Origin: J088 sp003695505 [NCBI: Candidatus Dadabacteria bacterium]
GTDB lineage: Bacteria > J088
NCBI GenBank assembly: GCA_003695505.1
Contig: RFIY01000039.1
Location: 1-8,659 of the forward strand
DNA: 8,659 nucleotides
Direction of reading: 5' to 3'
This document shows positions 1,640 through 8,659 of this stretch, piece by piece. Below the pieces are notes generated by a model, which saw nothing but the letters and a program-made list of their open reading frames with translations, was not told where the DNA came from and did no database searches. The number at the start of each line of letters is the position of its first letter. Positions within the stretch are counted from its first letter, which is position 1. The position numbers and the translations under genes are program-made.

Positions 1640-2008
1640 TCAGTCCAGCAGTTCGCGGATCTTGCGTGTGACCTGCGCTGCGCGCACGGGCTTGGTAATG
1701 TAGGCGTTTGCACCGAGACGAAAAGCCCGATTGCGGTCTTCCTCGCCGCTTTCGGTCGTGATCACAACGACGGGCGTGTCTCGATGTCGTTCATCCTGGC
1801 GGATCAGGCTGACCAGCTTCAGGCCATCCATCATCGGCATGTTGATGTCTGTGATCACGAGATCATAGACCTTTTCGCGGATCTTCTGCAGCCCCGCGAT
1901 CCCGTCTCCGGCTTCGTCGATGGTCAGGTCGCCGATTTTGCGAAGCGCCATGATCAATAACTGGCGCATGGTTGGGGAATCTTCCACGATCAGCACGTTG
2001 CGCGACAT
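1640..2008 (-). CDS. CheY-type single-domain response regulator
   Basis: This 122-residue protein is a lone receiver domain with no output domain. It should take a phosphoryl group from a CheA-type histidine kinase and pass the signal to a motor or other target by protein contact. All catalytic positions are present: the acidic pair E9/D10 in VLIVEDS, phospho-acceptor D54 in ITDINMPMMDG, the threonine pair T84/T85 at the end of strand 4, and K106 in ITKP. The length is typical of CheY. It starts 24 bases after the GAF gene's stop with no clear Shine-Dalgarno sequence, so coupling to upstream translation is likely. The stop lies 39 bases before the next gene. It may be called CheY or PilG depending on whether the output is flagella or pili; the window does not say which, so no symbol is given. 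Confidence 0.93.
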   Translation of the reverse strand: MSRNVLIVEDSPTMRQLLIMALRKIGDLTIDEAGDGIAGLQKIREKVYDLVITDINMPMMDGLKLVSLIRQDERHRDTPVVVITTESGEEDRNRAFRLGANAYITKPVRAAQVTRKIRELLD

Positions 2009-2032: not shown

Positions 2033-2896
2033 TCAGGATTTGGTCAGCAGGTCGATGAATCCCTGCATCGTCGACAGCTTTCGTTCGCTTTCGGTATAGA
2101 GGCGCGAAGCGAACACGGCAGTGGCGGCATGGCCCGCAAGGAGATGGAACAACTCGCGGTCGACATCGAGGAATCGCGGTTTTTGTTGCAGCAGTCGGAA
2201 AATGACGATGGCGCCGATCGTGTCATCCTTGATCTGCAACGGAATGACCGCGAGCGGTTGCTCCAGATCTGCTTCGGGCAACGCCAGACGGTCTTCGAAC
2301 AGTGCCATTTCGGCGCCTGCAACGGCCTGGCCTATGTCTCCTTCACCGAGCTTGACCTTGGGGAACTTGTCCGTGTCCAGCCCTTCTGATGCCACCGCCT
2401 GGAGGGAATCGCTTTTGGATTCGTACAGGTACACCGCAAATAACTCGGCACCGATCAGATTGATGACGATTTCGAGGATGATCTGGAGGACCTCATCGAA
2501 ATTGAGTGTGCTGTGCAACTGATAGCTGGCGATGTACAGATTGGCGAGGTTATTGTTTTCTTCCTCGACTTCCATGTACCGCTGGAGAAAGTCGCGGTTT
2601 TCTTCTTCGACTTCCTCGATGCGTGACAACAGACTGTTGTATTTTTCTTTCCAGGAGGACAGTTCTTTTTCAAGAAATGCGACACGGTCGTCCGCTGGCG
2701 CGCCAGCTCCGCTTTCGAGCTGGGATTCAACCGAGGCCAGACGATAGCGGAGGCGCTGGTTTTCCTGGATGACTTCCCGGAGGAAATCCGCGCCCCGATT
2801 GAACATGCGCAGAAAGTCTTCTGCCGCCCCTTCGTCCAGGGGCTGCGGGTCTGCGTCGCTCGTTCCGGGCGCTCTGGTTTGTTCTTCGCTGTTCAT
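2033..2896 (-). CDS. Coiled-coil and GAF domain protein of a chemosensory cluster
   Basis: This 287-residue soluble protein has no signal peptide or membrane segment. After an acidic, flexible start (residues 1-25) comes a long predicted coiled coil (about 26-125), with heptad-like charge patterns such as RIEEVEEENRDF and MEVEEENNN. A GAF domain (about 130-268) follows, opening with the dimer helix around LHSTLNFDEVLQIILEI and including VIPLQIKDDTIGAIVIF. GAF domains bind small ligands or cofactors or act as dimer platforms. No cysteine or histidine cluster suggests haem or iron-sulfur binding, and no kinase, cyclase or HTH output is attached. It begins with ATG and GAGG six bases upstream, after the 119-bp gap, so it probably opens the second transcription block with cheY. 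An accessory or scaffold role in the sensory array is inferred from context only. Confidence 0.85.
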   Translation of the reverse strand: MNSEEQTRAPGTSDADPQPLDEGAAEDFLRMFNRGADFLREVIQENQRLRYRLASVESQLESGAGAPADDRVAFLEKELSSWKEKYNSLLSRIEEVEEENRDFLQRYMEVEEENNNLANLYIASYQLHSTLNFDEVLQIILEIVINLIGAELFAVYLYESKSDSLQAVASEGLDTDKFPKVKLGEGDIGQAVAGAEMALFEDRLALPEADLEQPLAVIPLQIKDDTIGAIVIFRLLQQKPRFLDVDRELFHLLAGHAATAVFASRLYTESERKLSTMQGFIDLLTKS

Positions 2897-3015: not shown

Positions 3016-4110
3016 TCAACTGGATGGGGGCTTGCGCGGGCCGGCAAGACCGCGCATCCATTGCTCGAGAAAACCGCCCATCGTTGCCGCTGTGTAGACG
3101 TGGTCGGCAAGATCCGCCTCGACGATCGACTGCGGCATCCCAAATACGATCGCACTGGCGGGGTCTTCCGCGGCGACGGTTCCGCCGGCTTCGCGAACGA
3201 CCCGCGCCCCGGCCGTTCCGTCGTTGCCCATGCCGGTAATGACGACAGCAAGCGTCTGCGGGCCAAATTCCTGGGCAGCGCTTTCGAACAGACGGTCGAT
3301 TGCAGGAACATAGCGATCGTCGGGCGAGGCCGGGCGGACCTGCCAGCGTAGTTCCCGGCCCCGGCTCAGGGTCGTGTTTGCCCCACCGGGGCAGACGAAT
3401 GCTGTGCCGGCGCTGACCCGGTCGAGATCCTGAATTTCACGGACCGGAAATGGAAGGGTGCGGTCGAGGCGTTCGGCAAATGCGCGGGTGAAGCCGGGGG
3501 GCATGTGCTGGCAGATGACAATCGAGGCCCAGGGCTCGAGCGTGACGTTTTCGAGGATCTCCGACACCGTTCCGGGTCCGCCGGTGCTGGAGCCGATGCA
3601 AATCAGTTGCCGCGGCGCTTCGTAAACCTCCGGCAGTGCCTTGTGGATTTCGCGAGGGGCCTGGAATGCTGGCGGCGCGGGTGCTGTCTTGCGCAGATGC
3701 AGGCGCGGAAGATCCAGCAACTGAATCTTGTTGCGGAGCTGATCTTCGATCTCCCAGATGCGGGTACTTGCCGTCCGTGTCGGTTTCGATACGAAATCAA
3801 GAGCGCCGAGATCGAGTGCTTTCAGGACGTTGGCTTCGTCGTTCTGTCCGCTGACCACGAGGACCGGCGTGGGCTGGCGCGCCATCAGGAGCCGTAAGAA
3901 CGTAAAACCGTCCATGCGCGGCATTTCCAGATCGAGAAAGATCAGATCCGGTTGCTCGCGGAAGGCCATCTGCAGCCCCTCATCGCCAGCCGAAGCGGTC
4001 AGAAAAGTAGCGCCGGGCAGGAGGTCGGCCAGCATCTGGCGCAATGCGCGACGCGAATACGCCGAGTCGTCGACGATCAGGATACGCAGTTTGCGGTCTG
4101 CCCCGGTCAT
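3016..4110 (-). CDS. cheB: Chemotaxis response regulator protein-glutamate methylesterase CheB
   Basis: This 364-residue protein should remove methyl groups from (and may deamidate) glutamyl sites of chemoreceptors, resetting the array when phosphorylated by CheA. An N-terminal receiver (about 8-115) carries D14/D15, phospho-acceptor D60 in FLDLEMPRMDG, S87 and K109. A linker of about 50 residues, partly Ala/Pro-rich, leads to the methylesterase domain (about 166-355). Its catalytic triad is visible as S175 in IGSSTGG, H202 in CQHMPPG and D297 in TGMGNDGTAG. Length and architecture are those of canonical CheB. The ATG at 4110 overlaps the cheR stop (ATGA), with AGGA seven bases upstream, so CheR and CheB are likely made in coupled amounts. 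No receptor-docking pentapeptide partner is seen on the visible MCP tail. Confidence 0.96.
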   Translation of the reverse strand: MTGADRKLRILIVDDSAYSRRALRQMLADLLPGATFLTASAGDEGLQMAFREQPDLIFLDLEMPRMDGFTFLRLLMARQPTPVLVVSGQNDEANVLKALDLGALDFVSKPTRTASTRIWEIEDQLRNKIQLLDLPRLHLRKTAPAPPAFQAPREIHKALPEVYEAPRQLICIGSSTGGPGTVSEILENVTLEPWASIVICQHMPPGFTRAFAERLDRTLPFPVREIQDLDRVSAGTAFVCPGGANTTLSRGRELRWQVRPASPDDRYVPAIDRLFESAAQEFGPQTLAVVITGMGNDGTAGARVVREAGGTVAAEDPASAIVFGMPQSIVEADLADHVYTAATMGGFLEQWMRGLAGPRKPPSS

Positions 4111-6845
4111 CGCGGCTTCCTGTAGCAGACATGTCCACCTCGCTGCTCTGCCTGGAAGGGGTGCTCAAGGTTGAGCAGACTTTCCGCATGGCCCAGTAAC
4201 AGAACACCACCCGGCTTGAGCGCGTGCCACATGTTGCGAACAGCGCGCTCCTTGGCTGCGCGATCGAAATAGATGAGGACATTCCGACAGAAAATGGCGT
4301 CCGCGGGTGGCAACAGCGCGAGGCTGTCACTGTTGACGAGATTCAGCGTCACGAACTCGACTCGATCCATCTGTTCCTGATGGATCTGCCAGCGGCCGGG
4401 AGCGATCTGGTCGAAATATTGCGCGCGAATGTCCGGGGACAGGGTGCGGAACGCATTTTCGCGGTAGATTCCTGTACGGGCCTGCTCCAGGGACGGCGCG
4501 CTGATGTCCCCGGCGATGATCGTGGCGCGGTTGCGGCCGATCCCCGCGCGATCAAGGAGGATCGACAGGGTGTATGCTTCTTCTCCGGTCGAACAACCGG
4601 CGCTCCAGATCGTCGCCTGGCCCCCGGATGCATAGTCCGGCAGTCCCGGCAACAGATCGTCCAGAAAATATTCGAGCTGGCTCAGTTCCCGGAAAAAGTA
4701 GGTCTCTCCGGTCGTGATCGATTCGATAAGGTGCTGTGTGATGGCCTCGGCATCGAGATGATAACGGAGTCGTTGATAGTAGTCTCCCAGGTGCGGGCAG
4801 CCCGCCGCTTGCGCAAGTTGCTGGACTTTGCGTTCGTAGATCGCCCGGTTTTCGAGATGTAGTTGAATGCCGCTTGCGGCATAGACGTGTTCAGAAATCG
4901 CACGGAACCACATCCGGTTCTCGCTGTGACTGCGCAGGGTCCCGGAACTCCCAAGCAGGACGCGCAGATCGGTGTCGGACTCAACCTGCAGTACGGCCGC
5001 CAACTGCTCGCGAAACCGCTCGTATCCGGAAAACCAGCGACACGCTTCGTATCGGGCACGCCAGAACTGATCGCGTAGCAGATCGACATCCTCATCCCGT
5101 GGCTCGACCGCATTGACCTGTAGGTAGCGGATCAGCTCCGCGCGGATGTCCCCGGACGTTTCCCGCGGCAGCATGGCACGCACGCGGCCGGTATATTCGC
5201 GAGCCCGCATCGTACGCAAGAGACGAACGGCTTCGAGCCGCACGGCATCTCCCGAATCTGAAAGGAATTCTGCAGCGGTCTGGATGACGTCAGGGCCAAG
5301 TATTCTGGCCAGCGTGGACAGGCCGACGGCGCGGAGCCAGGGTTCCCGATCCAGCAGCAGGGTGCGGGCCTCTCGTTCCAGTTTCTCGTCGGCGATTTCG
5401 TGCAGGATCTCGGCGGCCGCAAGCCGAACCTCCGGGTTGCGGTCTGCAAGACCCAGCGCGAGGTACTGGCGCGCGAAATCGAGCCTGTATCTGGCCAGGA
5501 TGGAGAGTGCGCGGGCGCGCAAATGGGGTTCGGCCCGTTTCCATACACGCTCGACGTGCAGACCCAGTCCGGCGAGGTTCAGGCGCTCGACCAGGGTCAG
5601 AAGCGCCTCCCAGTTGCCATTGCCCACGGCCTCGGTTGCCCATGGCAGCAGCGCCTGCATGACGATTTCGCGTTGTTCCGGAAGGATTGCCTGCAATGCC
5701 TCGATCAGTTGTTCATCGGCGCCATACCGATCGAGCAGGGAGGGCAGGCGGGCCACCTGCTCCTGAGCACCAACGAGACAACCAGCACGAAACAGGCGCA
5801 GATCGTCGCCCTGCTCCTCGGCCGGGATTTGTGAGATGACTTGCCAGTATGCCGGATCTCGGCGACTGGCAATGATGTCGAGGAGCAGTCGTCGCTGCTC
5901 CGGCAGGGGCACGAGCTGGTTGACGACATTTGCGAAGTCGGCGTCCGGCAGGCTCGCCAATGCCGCGATGATGTGTGGCTGTGTCGCCAGAAATGGTTCA
6001 CGGCAGGCGAGCGCAGTGACCTCGGCCGTGTGTCCGGCAAACAGTGCGATCCATACCGCACCCGTGCGGATATGATCCTGCTGCCCGCGAAGCAGGGACA
6101 GTGCGTCGTCTCGTGTGATCTGAAGTTCAGGAAAGCCGGCCAGTTGGCAATAATGGCGGATTTCGTCCGGCGGCAAGGCTGACAAGTAGGCGGCTGCATC
6201 CTGAAGGCGAAGCACATCCAGTTCGGGAAGCCAGGCAAACACGAAAGGCAGCGCCTCGCGCGCGGGCAGTTCACCGAGCAGATCGAAGAGCGCACGCGTC
6301 AGGAGCGTCTGGTCTCTGAGGGGGGTCAGCGTCGAAAGATCGATTGAAATCGGCACGCCGCGCCGGAGCAATTCCGTCAATGCCTGCAAGGTCACGAACT
6401 GCTCCGATGGATCTCCCGTGCGTTGCACATGCTGCAGGAGCGCTTCACCCGCCATCGGCACCGCAATCTGCCCGAGCGCTTCGATTGCTGCATGTCGCAC
6501 GTTGACATCGGGTTCGTCGAGAAGTCGAATCAGGCGCGGGGCGGCAAGAGGCGAGCCAATCGCCGCGAGTACATCGATCAGAAATTTCCGCGGGCCATTG
6601 ACGGCGTGATCGAGCGCATCAACAACGGCTGGGACGACAGTGACCCCGACCGTTGTCAGAACTTCGATCAGCGCATTGCGCAGAACCGGGTCCTCGGTCT
6701 GTAACAATCGATCCAGAACGGCGTCCTGGATCGTTTCGAATGGTGCCCAGGAGCTGAGTTCCTGAATTGCCTGCTTCCGGACCTGCCAGTCCGGTGCAGC
6801 AAGGTTGCGCCAGACGCTTGCGGGTATTTCCGAGGTGGCGGGCAC
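4107..6845 (-). CDS. cheR: HEAT-repeat protein fused to CheR-type chemoreceptor methyltransferase
   Basis: This 912-residue protein is over three times the usual CheR length of about 280. The C-terminal part (about 645-908) is a full CheR: an alpha-helical N-subdomain, TGETYFFRE at 712-720, the SAM-binding loop SAGCSTGEEAYTL at 748-760, GDIS at 779-782, and FCRNVLIYF at 852-860. It should transfer methyl from S-adenosylmethionine to receptor glutamates, opposing CheB. The first 640 residues are soluble alpha-helical repeats. HEAT/PBS-lyase-like units are clearest at about 8-130 (PDVNVRHAAIEALGQIA) and 440-545 (RNPEVRLAAAEILHEIA), with more divergent helices between. Such solenoids usually bind proteins, so docking of CheR to a receptor or scaffold is inferred. 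The start is GTG 6845, the only reasonable start near the preceding gene; no Shine-Dalgarno sequence is seen and a strong hairpin lies just upstream. The stop overlaps cheB. Confidence 0.94.
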   Translation of the reverse strand: MPATSEIPASVWRNLAAPDWQVRKQAIQELSSWAPFETIQDAVLDRLLQTEDPVLRNALIEVLTTVGVTVVPAVVDALDHAVNGPRKFLIDVLAAIGSPLAAPRLIRLLDEPDVNVRHAAIEALGQIAVPMAGEALLQHVQRTGDPSEQFVTLQALTELLRRGVPISIDLSTLTPLRDQTLLTRALFDLLGELPAREALPFVFAWLPELDVLRLQDAAAYLSALPPDEIRHYCQLAGFPELQITRDDALSLLRGQQDHIRTGAVWIALFAGHTAEVTALACREPFLATQPHIIAALASLPDADFANVVNQLVPLPEQRRLLLDIIASRRDPAYWQVISQIPAEEQGDDLRLFRAGCLVGAQEQVARLPSLLDRYGADEQLIEALQAILPEQREIVMQALLPWATEAVGNGNWEALLTLVERLNLAGLGLHVERVWKRAEPHLRARALSILARYRLDFARQYLALGLADRNPEVRLAAAEILHEIADEKLEREARTLLLDREPWLRAVGLSTLARILGPDVIQTAAEFLSDSGDAVRLEAVRLLRTMRAREYTGRVRAMLPRETSGDIRAELIRYLQVNAVEPRDEDVDLLRDQFWRARYEACRWFSGYERFREQLAAVLQVESDTDLRVLLGSSGTLRSHSENRMWFRAISEHVYAASGIQLHLENRAIYERKVQQLAQAAGCPHLGDYYQRLRYHLDAEAITQHLIESITTGETYFFRELSQLEYFLDDLLPGLPDYASGGQATIWSAGCSTGEEAYTLSILLDRAGIGRNRATIIAGDISAPSLEQARTGIYRENAFRTLSPDIRAQYFDQIAPGRWQIHQEQMDRVEFVTLNLVNSDSLALLPPADAIFCRNVLIYFDRAAKERAVRNMWHALKPGGVLLLGHAESLLNLEHPFQAEQRGGHVCYRKPR

Positions 6846-6858
6846 GGCCAGAGGCTGC

Positions 6859-6884
6859 GGAAGCCGGGTTACTGCCCGGCTTCC
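6859..6884 (-). promoter_or_regulatory. Perfect 10-bp inverted repeat with a stop codon in its loop
   Basis: Arms 6859-6868 (GGAAGCCGGG on the plus strand) and 6875-6884 (CCCGGCTTCC) are exact complements around a 6-base loop. The loop holds the TAA stop of the zinc-ribbon gene. The transcript would read last codons, hairpin, 13 bases, then the GTG of cheR. No T-run follows, so it is not a standard intrinsic terminator. Attenuation, translational control of cheR or an RNA-processing site are possible roles. Confidence 0.55.
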
Positions 6885-7909
6885 CGCCGTTTGTTATCGA
6901 TGTAATCCCGCAACGCATTCAGCAGGAAGGGCTCGACGTCGCGAACCTCCGGGGCGATGCGCTCGGTGAACAACTGGGCACCCTCGGCCAGCTCGTCGGC
7001 GAGAATGACTTCAGGGTCGCCACCCGAAACCGCCTCGTCGATCTTGTCCGTATTGTAGAGCGCGATATCCGAAATGATCGTACGTGCAAGCCTGCGCGCC
7101 CGTTCGAGGCGCTGCTCATCACCGTCGGCAGGTGGGGGCGAGGCCGGTTCGGGCGTCTGCTCAGCGGCTGGTGGCGCGGGTGCTGTGGATGGGGGGGCTG
7201 GCTCGGATACCGCTGGAGACGCGGCAGGGGCAGTCGTATCTGCGGGCGGTGCAGTGGGGGCGGCCTCCTGTGGCTCGGTTGGCGCCGCTTTGGCACCGAG
7301 CAGACGGCTGATTTTTTCTTGCAGTTCGTCAGGAATACGGTGCTTCTCAATATAATCGTCGGCACCGTACAGGGAGCTGGGGGGGCGCTTGTAGCGGCTC
7401 TCGTCGTAAATGGCGGCAACCAGCACAACGCGCACCCCGGACAATTCCTCATCGCGCCTCACGATTTCGCAAACCTCGAAACCGAACATCTTTGGCAACG
7501 CGACATCGAGAATCGCAATCTGAGGTTTGTGGGTCTCGATATACATCAGTGCATCGACGCCGTTGTCCGTGATATGAACTTCTTTGGCAAAGGCGGCCAC
7601 AGTGCTCTGGATTTCTGCCGCGACGTCCGGATTGGCGTGAGCGATCAAAATAATCGCATCACCAGTGCCGGTATCGTCCGTCGCTGAGGATGGCGCAGGT
7701 GCCGCGGCCTCTGCGTTGGGTTGCGGCGCCGCGGGGGCCGGCGGTTCAGGCTGGGGCGGGGCAGTCGGCGCTTCGACCTCGGGCTCCGACAGATCGACAT
7801 CAAATGGCTCACCGCACTTCTTGCAACGAATGCGCAAGCGAGGCTTGTCGAATTTGGCGGGATCCAGCCGGTAACGGGTGTCGCAATGCGTACAGGCGAC
7901 AACTTTCAT
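6869..7909 (-). CDS. Zinc-ribbon / atypical receiver / C-terminal helical module protein
   Basis: This 346-residue soluble protein has three parts joined by Pro/Ala-rich linkers (about 45-80 and 207-262). Residues 1-40 form an MJ0042-type zinc ribbon with CTHC at 6-9 and CKKC at 29-32. Residues about 85-205 form a receiver with phospho-acceptor D135 in AILDVALPKMFGFE and K189 in YIEKH. The acidic pair that binds magnesium is replaced by A90/H91, and the strand-4 Ser/Thr by Ala, so normal phosphorylation is doubtful. Residues about 263-343 are a charged helical module (ARRLARTIISDIALYN, then GAQLFTERI) of unknown role that resembles tails of other zinc-ribbon proteins, from memory. The ATG at 7909 overlaps the MCP stop (ATGA), and GAGGA lies nine bases upstream. 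It probably links the MCP to CheR/CheB as an adaptor; this is inference from order and architecture. Confidence 0.88.
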   Translation of the reverse strand: MKVVACTHCDTRYRLDPAKFDKPRLRIRCKKCGEPFDVDLSEPEVEAPTAPPQPEPPAPAAPQPNAEAAAPAPSSATDDTGTGDAIILIAHANPDVAAEIQSTVAAFAKEVHITDNGVDALMYIETHKPQIAILDVALPKMFGFEVCEIVRRDEELSGVRVVLVAAIYDESRYKRPPSSLYGADDYIEKHRIPDELQEKISRLLGAKAAPTEPQEAAPTAPPADTTAPAASPAVSEPAPPSTAPAPPAAEQTPEPASPPPADGDEQRLERARRLARTIISDIALYNTDKIDEAVSGGDPEVILADELAEGAQLFTERIAPEVRDVEPFLLNALRDYIDNKRREAGQ

Positions 7910-8659
7910 GTGTAATCTTCCTCTGGCTCAGGTTCGTTGGAGTCTTCCTGCGATAACGCAGCGCGTTCGCTGTCCTGTTCAATTTCCGGCGCTTTGTCGT
8001 CGTCCGAGAAATCACGCAGCAGCCGCTGGAAGCGCGCGATTTCCTCATTCAGGATACGCACGACATCGGATTGCTGCTGGGCGTACTTGAGGTTGGTCTC
8101 GGCCGACTGTCTGATCTCGTCGGTGACTTCGAGTACCCGATCGCTGCCAGAGCGCTGTTCTTTGAGGCTGCGAGCGATCTGGCGAACCATCTCGGTAATG
8201 CGTTCGATGGCCTGGGTAATCATCTTGCTTCCGGTCGACTGTTCACTGGTGGTGCGACGCACCTGCTGCGCGATGTTTTGCATGTTTTGCGCGGCCTTGC
8301 GTAGCGCCTCGGCCTGACTGCCTTGCGCTTCCGTATTCTGAGCAAGATGTGACACCATTTCGGCAACCTGCTGGATGCTCATCGCGACCTGATGACTGCC
8401 GCGGCTCTGCTCCGCGGTGGTCTGCTCGATAGAACGCACGCGTTCAAGCACGGATTCCGTGGATGACAGGATCGATTCGAGCGCCTGCTCGGCGTCTTCC
8501 GCACGGTCACGTCCCGCCGTGATTGCATCGCGACTCTGCCGCATTGCATCGGATGCGCGACGGCTCTCGGTCTGAACGTCCTCGATCAGTCGTGCAATCG
8601 CCTGAATCGAATCAGCCGTCTGCTCGGAAAGCTCCTTGATCTGACGCGCAACCACGGAG
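7906..8659 (-). CDS. Methyl-accepting chemotaxis protein, C-terminal part (5' end outside window)
   Basis: The reading frame is open to the right edge, so about 250 C-terminal residues are visible. It opens with VARQIKELSEQTADSIQAI, which corresponds to the stretch just after the conserved MCP hairpin tip (DEVRKLAERT-type in other receptors); the CheA/CheW-binding tip itself lies outside. The next 210 or so residues are one continuous coiled-coil arm of the cytoplasmic signalling domain, long enough for one of the longer heptad classes. A Q-x2-GS-type motif recurs (EQSRGS, AQGS, EQSTGS, EQRSGS). The last 32 residues (DDDKAPEIEQ to EEDYT) are acidic and probably disordered, with no NWETF-like CheR-docking pentapeptide. 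Sensor domain and membrane segments are not visible, so the stimulus is unknown and a PilJ-like or flagellar role cannot be separated. ATGA overlap with the next gene implies coupled translation. Confidence 0.92.
   Translation of the reverse strand, partial: SVVARQIKELSEQTADSIQAIARLIEDVQTESRRASDAMRQSRDAITAGRDRAEDAEQALESILSSTESVLERVRSIEQTTAEQSRGSHQVAMSIQQVAEMVSHLAQNTEAQGSQAEALRKAAQNMQNIAQQVRRTTSEQSTGSKMITQAIERITEMVRQIARSLKEQRSGSDRVLEVTDEIRQSAETNLKYAQQQSDVVRILNEEIARFQRLLRDFSDDDKAPEIEQDSERAALSQEDSNEPEPEEDYT

What the first reader, a model, noticed from the sequence alone, without database searches (positions are those of the whole stretch)
6869..7909. Receiver with phospho-acceptor Asp but no metal-binding acidic pair, behind a zinc ribbon
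The receiver keeps D135 and K189, but the strand-1 acidic pair is A90/H91 and the strand-4 Ser/Thr is Ala. Magnesium-dependent phosphotransfer normally needs the acidic pair, so this may be a pseudo-receiver that senses by binding, or that uses the zinc ribbon. The MCP to zinc-ribbon to CheR to CheB gene order suggests an adaptor inside the adaptation machinery.
Basis: partly seen in the sequence, partly recalled or inferred. Interest (0 to 1): 0.6.

Follow-up and report, generated by a model that had tools for sequence, protein, structure and literature searches.

The report
Pseudo-receiver linking chemosensory operon to polarity GTPase
A chemosensory operon carries a small signalling protein whose phosphorylation site has decayed in all relatives examined and whose tail is a relative of RomX, the partner of the bacterial polarity switch MglA, so it probably wires environmental sensing to cell polarity by binding and not by phosphorylation.

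Summary
The 346-aa protein has a four-Cys zinc ribbon and a receiver that keeps D135 and K189 but lacks the acidic pair, which is H91/A92 (not A90/H91), and has Ala165 at the Ser/Thr position. It is no exception: 0 of 60 profile-drawn orthologues has an acidic pair. D135 itself varies (15 of 30 on the Nitrospirota side).

Residues ~263-345 form a RomX-family domain: phmmer with the window segment alone finds only RomX (8zna) in the PDB at E<=1 (1.6e-8), and its predicted fold matches 8zna (Z 11.8, 84 residues). RomX binds the Ras-like polarity GTPase MglA. This genome has an MglA gene behind a roadblock (MglB-like) gene. All 16 RomX-positive genomes of 98 carry MglA-like proteins, against 19 of 82 others. 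In the Nitrospirota-side class, close MglA is in 48 of 53 orthologue-positive and 4 of 97 other genomes.

Best reading: a binding-only pseudo-receiver coupling a CheA/CheW/HEAT/CheR/CheB chemosensory system (syntenic with Geobacter Esn genes) to MglA. Domains and co-occurrence are shown; binding and direction of signalling are inferred.

The parts
6869..7909 (-). whole gene: zinc ribbon + pseudo-receiver + Pro-rich linker + RomX-type domain, 346 aa
7793..7909 (-). zinc ribbon, residues 1-39 (C6, C9, C29, C32)
   Evidence: Zn_ribbon_4 34.4 bits; Cys 60 of 60 orthologues; pLDDT about 95
7661..7792 (-). Pro/Ala-rich linker 1, residues 40-83
   Evidence: low pLDDT
7295..7660 (-). pseudo-receiver, residues 84-205; H91/A92 at the acidic pair, D135, A165, K189
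7337..7414 (-). conserved beta4-beta5 segment, residues 166-191 (family pattern Y.R.P.SLYGADDYIEKH), no alpha4 helix in the model; R175 and D184 in 60 of 60
7124..7294 (-). Pro/Ala-rich linker 2, residues 206-262
   Evidence: low pLDDT
6872..7123 (-). RomX-family domain, residues 263-346
7906..8658 (-). C-terminal part of an MCP (runs off the window); its stop overlaps the gene's start
   Evidence: MCPsignal 60.9 bits
4107..6845 (-). HEAT-repeat / CheR fusion, 912 aa
   Evidence: CheR 167.9 bits, HEAT_2 82.6 bits
3016..4110 (-). CheB (REC + methylesterase)
2033..2896 (-). operon GAF protein, 287 aa, GAF at about 132-261
1640..2008 (-). single-domain CheY-like receiver (acidic pair E-D present)

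Best explanation
It is a chemosensory-linked MglA adaptor. The zinc ribbon and pseudo-receiver dock it, without phosphotransfer, onto a component of the che system encoded around it (candidates: the HEAT protein, the phosphorylated CheY-like proteins or the CheA/CheW array). The flexible Pro-rich linker presents a RomX-type domain that binds the Ras-like GTPase MglA, most likely MglA-GTP, so that chemosensory signalling positions or activates MglA and through it polarity and type IV pili. Shown: domain composition, loss of the receiver's acidic pair in all members examined, RomX homology in sequence and fold, operon conservation, co-occurrence with MglA, MglA in this genome. Inferred: MglA binding, the docking partner, the direction of signalling and the motility output.
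For: RomX homology: profile A2 vs 8zna E 2.2e-22; window segment alone E 1.6e-8, the only hit at E<=1; fold Z 11.8, rmsd 2.2, 84 residues, next row 6.3. The genome has MglA (197 aa, 321 bits to PDB chains named MglA) just after a roadblock-domain frame. RomX without MglA: 0 of 16 (Fisher 4e-9, shared ancestry not corrected). Close MglA in 48 of 53 orthologue-positive vs 4 of 97 negative genomes of the Nitrospirota-side class. In G000, G014 and G044 the fused protein is the only RomX found. Pseudo-receiver: acidic pair 0 of 60; D135 43 of 60; R175 and D184 60 of 60. Operon: CheA, CheW, CheR, CheB and HEAT on the same strand in 26 of 26 HEAT-linked loci with at least 8 kb on both sides. Literature passages: RomR-REC binds RomX, which engages MglA (PMC12719032); RomX interacts with MglA (PMC9481161).
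Against: No interaction was tested. 0 of 60 fused members have the C-terminal S.IW tail that 8 of 9 stand-alone RomX proteins read here have, so partners may differ. In the Desulfuromonadia-side class MglA is nearly universal (139 of 146): 68 of 71 orthologue-positive and 71 of 75 other genomes have it, so co-occurrence says nothing there, and 3 positives had no MglA hit. MglA also occurs without RomX (19 of 82). In many Nitrospirota the gene is outside the che operon, and its presence also goes with the che system's GAF protein (24 of 27), so MglA is not the only correlate. The passages read disagree on whether RomX is a GEF or an effector.
Confidence: 0.55

Rival explanations
1. It acts inside the adaptation machinery, as a non-catalytic adaptor that tethers HEAT-CheR and CheB to receptors; the RomX-type domain serves as a receptor- or CheR-binding helix bundle.
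For: Position directly before HEAT/CheR/CheB, median gap 14.5 bases in 52 loci; upstream gene is CheW (38) or MCP (11). In 24 of 27 genomes whose locus lacks an adjacent HEAT gene, the operon's GAF protein is still encoded.
Against: In 5 Nitrospirota operons read, HEAT-CheR-CheB-GAF-CheY stays together without it (in one of them the contig starts at HEAT); presence follows MglA in that class; RomX is a known MglA partner.
Confidence: 0.15
2. The receiver is still phosphorylated on D135 at low efficiency or with another metal (H91 plus E/S92 plus D135 as ligands) in the lineages that keep Asp and Lys.
For: D135 53 of 55 in HEAT-linked members; K189 28 of 30 on the Desulfuromonadia side; H or N at 91 in 60 of 60; Ser or Thr at 165 in 26 of 60.
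Against: Acidic pair in 0 of 60; Asp is Glu in 13 of 30 and Lys is Glu in 27 of 30 on the Nitrospirota side, so the protein persists without them.
Confidence: 0.12
3. The RomX-type domain does not bind MglA itself but competes with stand-alone RomX for a RomR-type receiver or another polar protein, making it an inhibitor or decoy.
For: 4 genomes (G020, G040, G056, G091) carry both fused and stand-alone RomX, and all four have a RomR-C match; the fused form lacks the S.IW tail.
Against: In G000 and G044 neither stand-alone RomX nor a RomR-C match was found (G000 is 84.5% complete), leaving nothing known to compete with.
Confidence: 0.13

Closest known systems
RomR-RomX (M. xanthus polarity complex)
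   Same: receiver, Pro-rich linker and RomX-type helical domain, in genomes with MglA; RomR-REC partners RomX in trans (PMC12719032 passage)
   Different: one polypeptide; zinc ribbon added; no RomR-C match in G000; the receiver lacks the acidic pair that the RomR-like protein read in G028 keeps; encoded in a che operon
Geobacter Esn genes / class 40H che proteins (GSU2220-2222), and the mcp-less group alpha/beta che clusters of Tran 2008
   Same: CheA, ATPase and CheW side by side as in Geobacter locus L048
   Different: the passages read mention neither a zinc-ribbon/RomX gene nor a HEAT or GAF protein of the operon (find: 0 each for HEAT, GAF and zinc in PMC2577667; 0 for HEAT repeat in PMC5585712); assignment is by synteny only
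FrzS pseudo-receiver (M. xanthus)
   Same: pseudo-receiver acting by protein binding in MglA-dependent T4P control (PMC12632262 section 19)
   Different: FrzS binds SgmX; that it has no RomX-type domain or zinc ribbon is recalled
Short zinc-ribbon-REC paralogues (L239 1922-2536, L240 1485-2033)
   Same: same N-terminal zinc ribbon + receiver order
   Different: active site intact by eye (VVDD, D.LP, S, K), no RomX-type match

Membership tests
Bacterial pseudo-receivers (PF00072, definition of PMC12632262) | recognised as a receiver by PF00072 | tested here: met
   47.1 bits vs cut-off 30.2; receiver fold Z about 18
[quoted passage not shown]
   H91/A92 and A165; full set in 0 of 60 orthologues
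RomX family (as a domain) | sequence homology to RomX | tested here: met
   E 1.6e-8 single sequence; E 2.2e-22 profile
RomX family (as a domain) | RomX fold | tested here: met
   8zna Z 11.8, rmsd 2.2, 84 of 85 residues; next row Z 6.3; Foldseek rank 1, E 2.7e-3, prob 1.00. The aligner's note warns that Z under about 13 can be a common arrangement for helical bundles; the sequence match settles it
RomX family (as a domain) | co-occurrence with MglA | tested here: met
   16 of 16 RomX-positive genomes
RomX family (as a domain) | binding or nucleotide exchange on MglA; binding of RomR-REC | not testable with these tools
   needs biochemistry
RomR | RomR-C region with invariant Trp and Pro (PMC3441718 passage) | tested here: not met
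   no RomR-C match in G000 at E<=0.001; the window C-terminus matches RomX instead
CheV-type adaptor | CheW domain fused to a receiver | tested here: not met
   no CheW match in the protein at E<=0.001
Class 40H / Esn chemosensory system | CheA/CheW of the 40H class in the operon | tested here: inconclusive
   CheA-ATPase-CheW in Geobacter L048 as annotated for GSU2222-2220 (PMC5585712); the class itself was not computed, and the window contig ends in the MCP

The most novel reading that the evidence does not exclude
The protein is the physical output link of a widespread, partly mcp-less chemosensory system to the MglA polarity GTPase: RomR's and RomX's jobs fused into one phosphorylation-independent protein, so that in Desulfuromonadia, Nitrospirota and this deep lineage the che array itself recruits MglA to steer pili or surface attachment, including Geobacter electrode colonisation.
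Probability: 0.4. Interest if true: 0.85.

Novelty: new variant of a known kind. Interest (0 to 1): 0.7.

Why it matters
How chemosensory systems talk to the MglA polarity switch is known mainly from Frz in M. xanthus (in part recalled), where phosphorylated FrzZ is suggested to act on RomR (PMC3441718 passage), separate from RomX. A single protein with a RomX-type domain inside a che operon gives a direct, testable wire, and would give the Esn system, needed for electrode growth (PMC5585712), a candidate output. It also offers the pseudo-receiver field, whose mechanisms the abstract of PMC12632262 calls a mystery, a case with a defined partner to test.

Tried and rejected
Rejected: (1) single odd copy or artefact - the loss is seen in every member examined. 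(2) RomR orthologue - no RomR-C, and among fetched loci the receiver profile scores best on canonical receivers with a YGADDYI segment such as L022. (3) CheV-type adaptor - no CheW domain. (4) RomX-type domain as a chance helix bundle - single-sequence hit, fold hit and co-occurrence agree. (5) PDB fold searches of the whole protein listed receivers (plus a few chains matched through a receiver-like part) and did not test the other parts, so the C-terminal domain was folded alone. Pfam and NCBIfam listed no family above its cut-off for the stand-alone RomX-type proteins or the window's C-terminus (Pfam; NCBIfam, one stand-alone protein and two full-length ones).

Led nowhere or weak: MglA co-occurrence on the Desulfuromonadia side. 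'GSU2217' is in no paper of the library. Novelty searches: zinc ribbon, receiver domain, chemotaxis, CheR, HEAT (the 20 listed papers have 0 'zinc ribbon'); RomX with zinc ribbon: 0 papers; RomX, chemosensory and Geobacter: 0 papers. The 2019 RomX paper is not held and no preprints are, so they may say more. Whether M. xanthus che8 holds this gene was not tested; G028, myxobacterial by its RomR and RomX (inference, unnamed), shows one RomX, stand-alone.

Sampling limits: the 80 loci are the best of 272 and were found by two motifs that contain D135 or YGAD, so conservation there is biased; 3 pairs of the 87 rows are the same protein. The 60 proteins come from the best 30 matches of each of two searches (71 and 53 positive genomes) with a profile of full-length members, so degenerate or partial members are under-sampled; 27 of the 60 share their receiver sequence with the 87. 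Positives at E<=1e-30 are an upper bound: some match only part of the profile (G271 and G282, receiver part only) or are short zinc-ribbon-REC paralogues (G135's second match). The MglA cut-off of 1e-79 was chosen after seeing the list; at 1e-40 the figures are 51 of 53 and 23 of 97, at 1e-60 51 of 53 and 13 of 97. In one search, 32 proteins lacked a HEAT gene nearby, but L011, L013, L014 and L015 are short loci (L011 equals L099, L013 equals L086 and G091 was re-read in L134: all three have HEAT adjacent) and L052 and L109 lie at contig ends; the '27' used above leaves out L011, L013, L014, L015 and L052 but keeps L109. Of the 31 genomes, 28 had the GAF protein; 27 of the 31 are these loci. 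One further stretch, L133 (G020), showed GAF and CheY only.

Full report
Observation. The gene at 6869-7909(-) encodes 346 aa. Pfam gives Zn_ribbon_4 at 4-36 and Response_reg at 87-200. D135 and K189 are present and the strand-4 Ser/Thr position is Ala165. The start codon overlaps the MCP stop (ATGA), the HEAT-CheR fusion starts 23 bases after the stop, and CheB, a GAF protein and a single CheY-like receiver follow on the same strand.

Orthologues. Aligned with the window and six further members (87 rows, 84 distinct), none has two acidic residues at 91/92 (one row is a gap there). That scan's motifs include D135 and YGAD, so I repeated the count on 60 members drawn by profile search in two classes; 27 of them share the receiver sequence with the first set. 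Acidic pair: 0 of 60. D135: 28 of 30 (2 Asn) on the Desulfuromonadia side and 15 of 30 (13 Glu, 1 Ser, 1 Gly) on the Nitrospirota side. K189: 28 of 30 and 1 of 30 (27 Glu). Ser or Thr at 165: 11 of 30 and 15 of 30. R175, D184 and the four zinc-ribbon Cys: 60 of 60. So the full catalytic set is in none of them, even the phospho-acceptor is dispensable, and another surface is kept. The side names rest on the titles of L052 and L058, on whose genomes the two classes were centred. By the definition in PMC12632262 (abstract, sections 4, 5, 7 and 19, and passages seen) this is a pseudo-receiver. Receivers such as L022, close to the family profile, keep an intact active site with a related YGADDYI segment, so the loss looks derived (inference).

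The C-terminal domain. A profile of 46 members found RomX (8zna) as the top PDB sequence hit, E 2.2e-22. The window's last 93 residues alone hit only 8zna at E<=1, with E 1.6e-8. The whole protein is modelled as zinc ribbon, receiver and helical domain, mostly above pLDDT 90, joined by low-confidence linkers; the receiver model shows no alpha4 helix between strands 4 and 5 (mean pLDDT 65 at residues 171-180). The C-terminal domain folded alone (pLDDT 96) matches 8zna with Z 11.8, rmsd 2.2, 84 residues, next row Z 6.3; Foldseek ranks 8zna first with E 2.7e-3, prob 1.00. R276, D281, Y285 and R317 are in 60 of 60. Stand-alone RomX proteins of roughly 81-92 aa occur in several genomes (two lie in longer open frames); 8 of the 9 read end in S.IW, which 0 of 60 fused members do.

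MglA. The window's genome has a roadblock-domain frame ending some 40 bases before a 197-aa MglA (321 bits to PDB chains named MglA). Over 98 genomes, each from a different family and G000 included, RomX domains are in 16, MglA-like proteins at E<=1e-15 in 35, and no RomX occurs without MglA: 16 of 16 against 19 of 82. Within the Nitrospirota-side class, close MglA (E<=1e-79, a cut chosen after seeing the list) is in 48 of 53 orthologue-positive genomes and 4 of 97 others; at E<=1e-40 the figures are 51 of 53 and 23 of 97. On the Desulfuromonadia side MglA is nearly universal (139 of 146; 68 of 71 positives), so nothing can be concluded there. None of these tests corrects for shared ancestry. 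RomR-C was not found in G000 or G044, but was in G014, G020, G040, G056 and G091; G000 is 84.5% complete.

Operon. Of 34 loci with at least 8 kb on both sides, 26 have the gene just before the HEAT gene, and all 26 also carry CheA, CheW, CheR and CheB on the same strand; 5 carry an MCP recognisable by these queries. In Geobacter L048 the order is DUF4388-REC, CheY, CheA, AAA_22 ATPase, CheW, REC, CheW, Zn-REC-RomX, HEAT, CheR, CheB, GAF, CheY. CheA, ATPase and CheW are also neighbours as GSU2222, 2221 and 2220, whose CheA and CheW mutants (esnC, esnB) fail on electrodes but not on Fe(III) oxide (PMC5585712, passages and section 10). Tran 2008 (PMC2577667, abstract, passages and section 12) describes mcp-less alpha and beta che clusters in Geobacter and delta-proteobacteria; mapping them to this operon is my inference. 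In 27 loci no HEAT gene was found beside the gene (one, L109, ends at a contig edge); 18 of the 27 lie upstream of groEL. 24 of those 27 genomes still encode the operon's GAF protein at E<=1e-74. In 5 such operons read, HEAT-CheR-CheB-GAF-CheY runs on without it; in 4 of them CheW stands directly before HEAT and in the fifth the contig starts there.

Mechanism. Shown: composition, loss of the acidic pair in the members examined, RomX homology, operon and MglA association. From literature passages: RomR-REC binds RomX, which engages MglA and stabilises its GTP form (PMC12719032); RomX alone has GEF activity (PMC10329633), or RomRX is an effector (Dinet 2024 as reported in PMC12719032; itself not seen). 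Inferred: the fused protein docks on the che system by its zinc ribbon and pseudo-receiver and brings MglA to it. Membership: it contains a RomX-family domain and a pseudo-receiver; it is not RomR and not CheV.

Novelty. I found no description of a zinc-ribbon/pseudo-receiver/RomX protein, but the 2019 RomX paper and preprints are not held. I rate it a new variant of a known kind. Other papers used: PMC3441718, PMC3945109 and PMC9481161, passages only.

Noticed in passing
window 4107-6845(-): HEAT repeats and CheR are fused in one 912-aa protein here; in 47 relatives' loci where both were seen they are separate genes.
   Followed up: partly
L058, L070, L083, L084, L085 and 13 other Nitrospirota loci: The gene lies upstream of groEL, outside the che operon, in 18 of 27 loci without an adjacent HEAT gene.
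   Followed up: partly
L168 2504-3337(-) and 4118-4684(-): A zinc-ribbon + RomX protein without a receiver lies about 0.8 kb from an MglA-like protein (63.6 bits) whose P-loop looks altered.
   Followed up: no
L170 1998-2888(-), L171 718-1863(+), L169 2684-4618(-): RomX-type domains at the end of other proteins: zinc ribbon + Pro-rich linker, an apparent membrane segment, and a 644-aa protein; RomX looks like a general module.
   Followed up: partly
L239 1922-2536(+), L240 1485-2033(+): Short zinc-ribbon-receiver paralogues with an apparently intact active site and no RomX-type domain.
   Followed up: partly
G000:C144 (L123): An AAA_22 ATPase and two CheW genes in the operon's order lie on another contig of the same genome, possibly the missing 5' part of this operon.
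   Followed up: partly
L048 7437-8237(+): The operon's AAA_22 ATPase is near the XrtA/PEP-CTERM-associated ATPase model (236.7 bits, below its cut-off of 324.5); its role in a che operon is unexplained.
   Followed up: no
L111 390-1571(+): A RomR-like protein (receiver + RomR-C) is encoded about 3 kb upstream of the first gene seen of a che operon carrying the fused protein.
   Followed up: no
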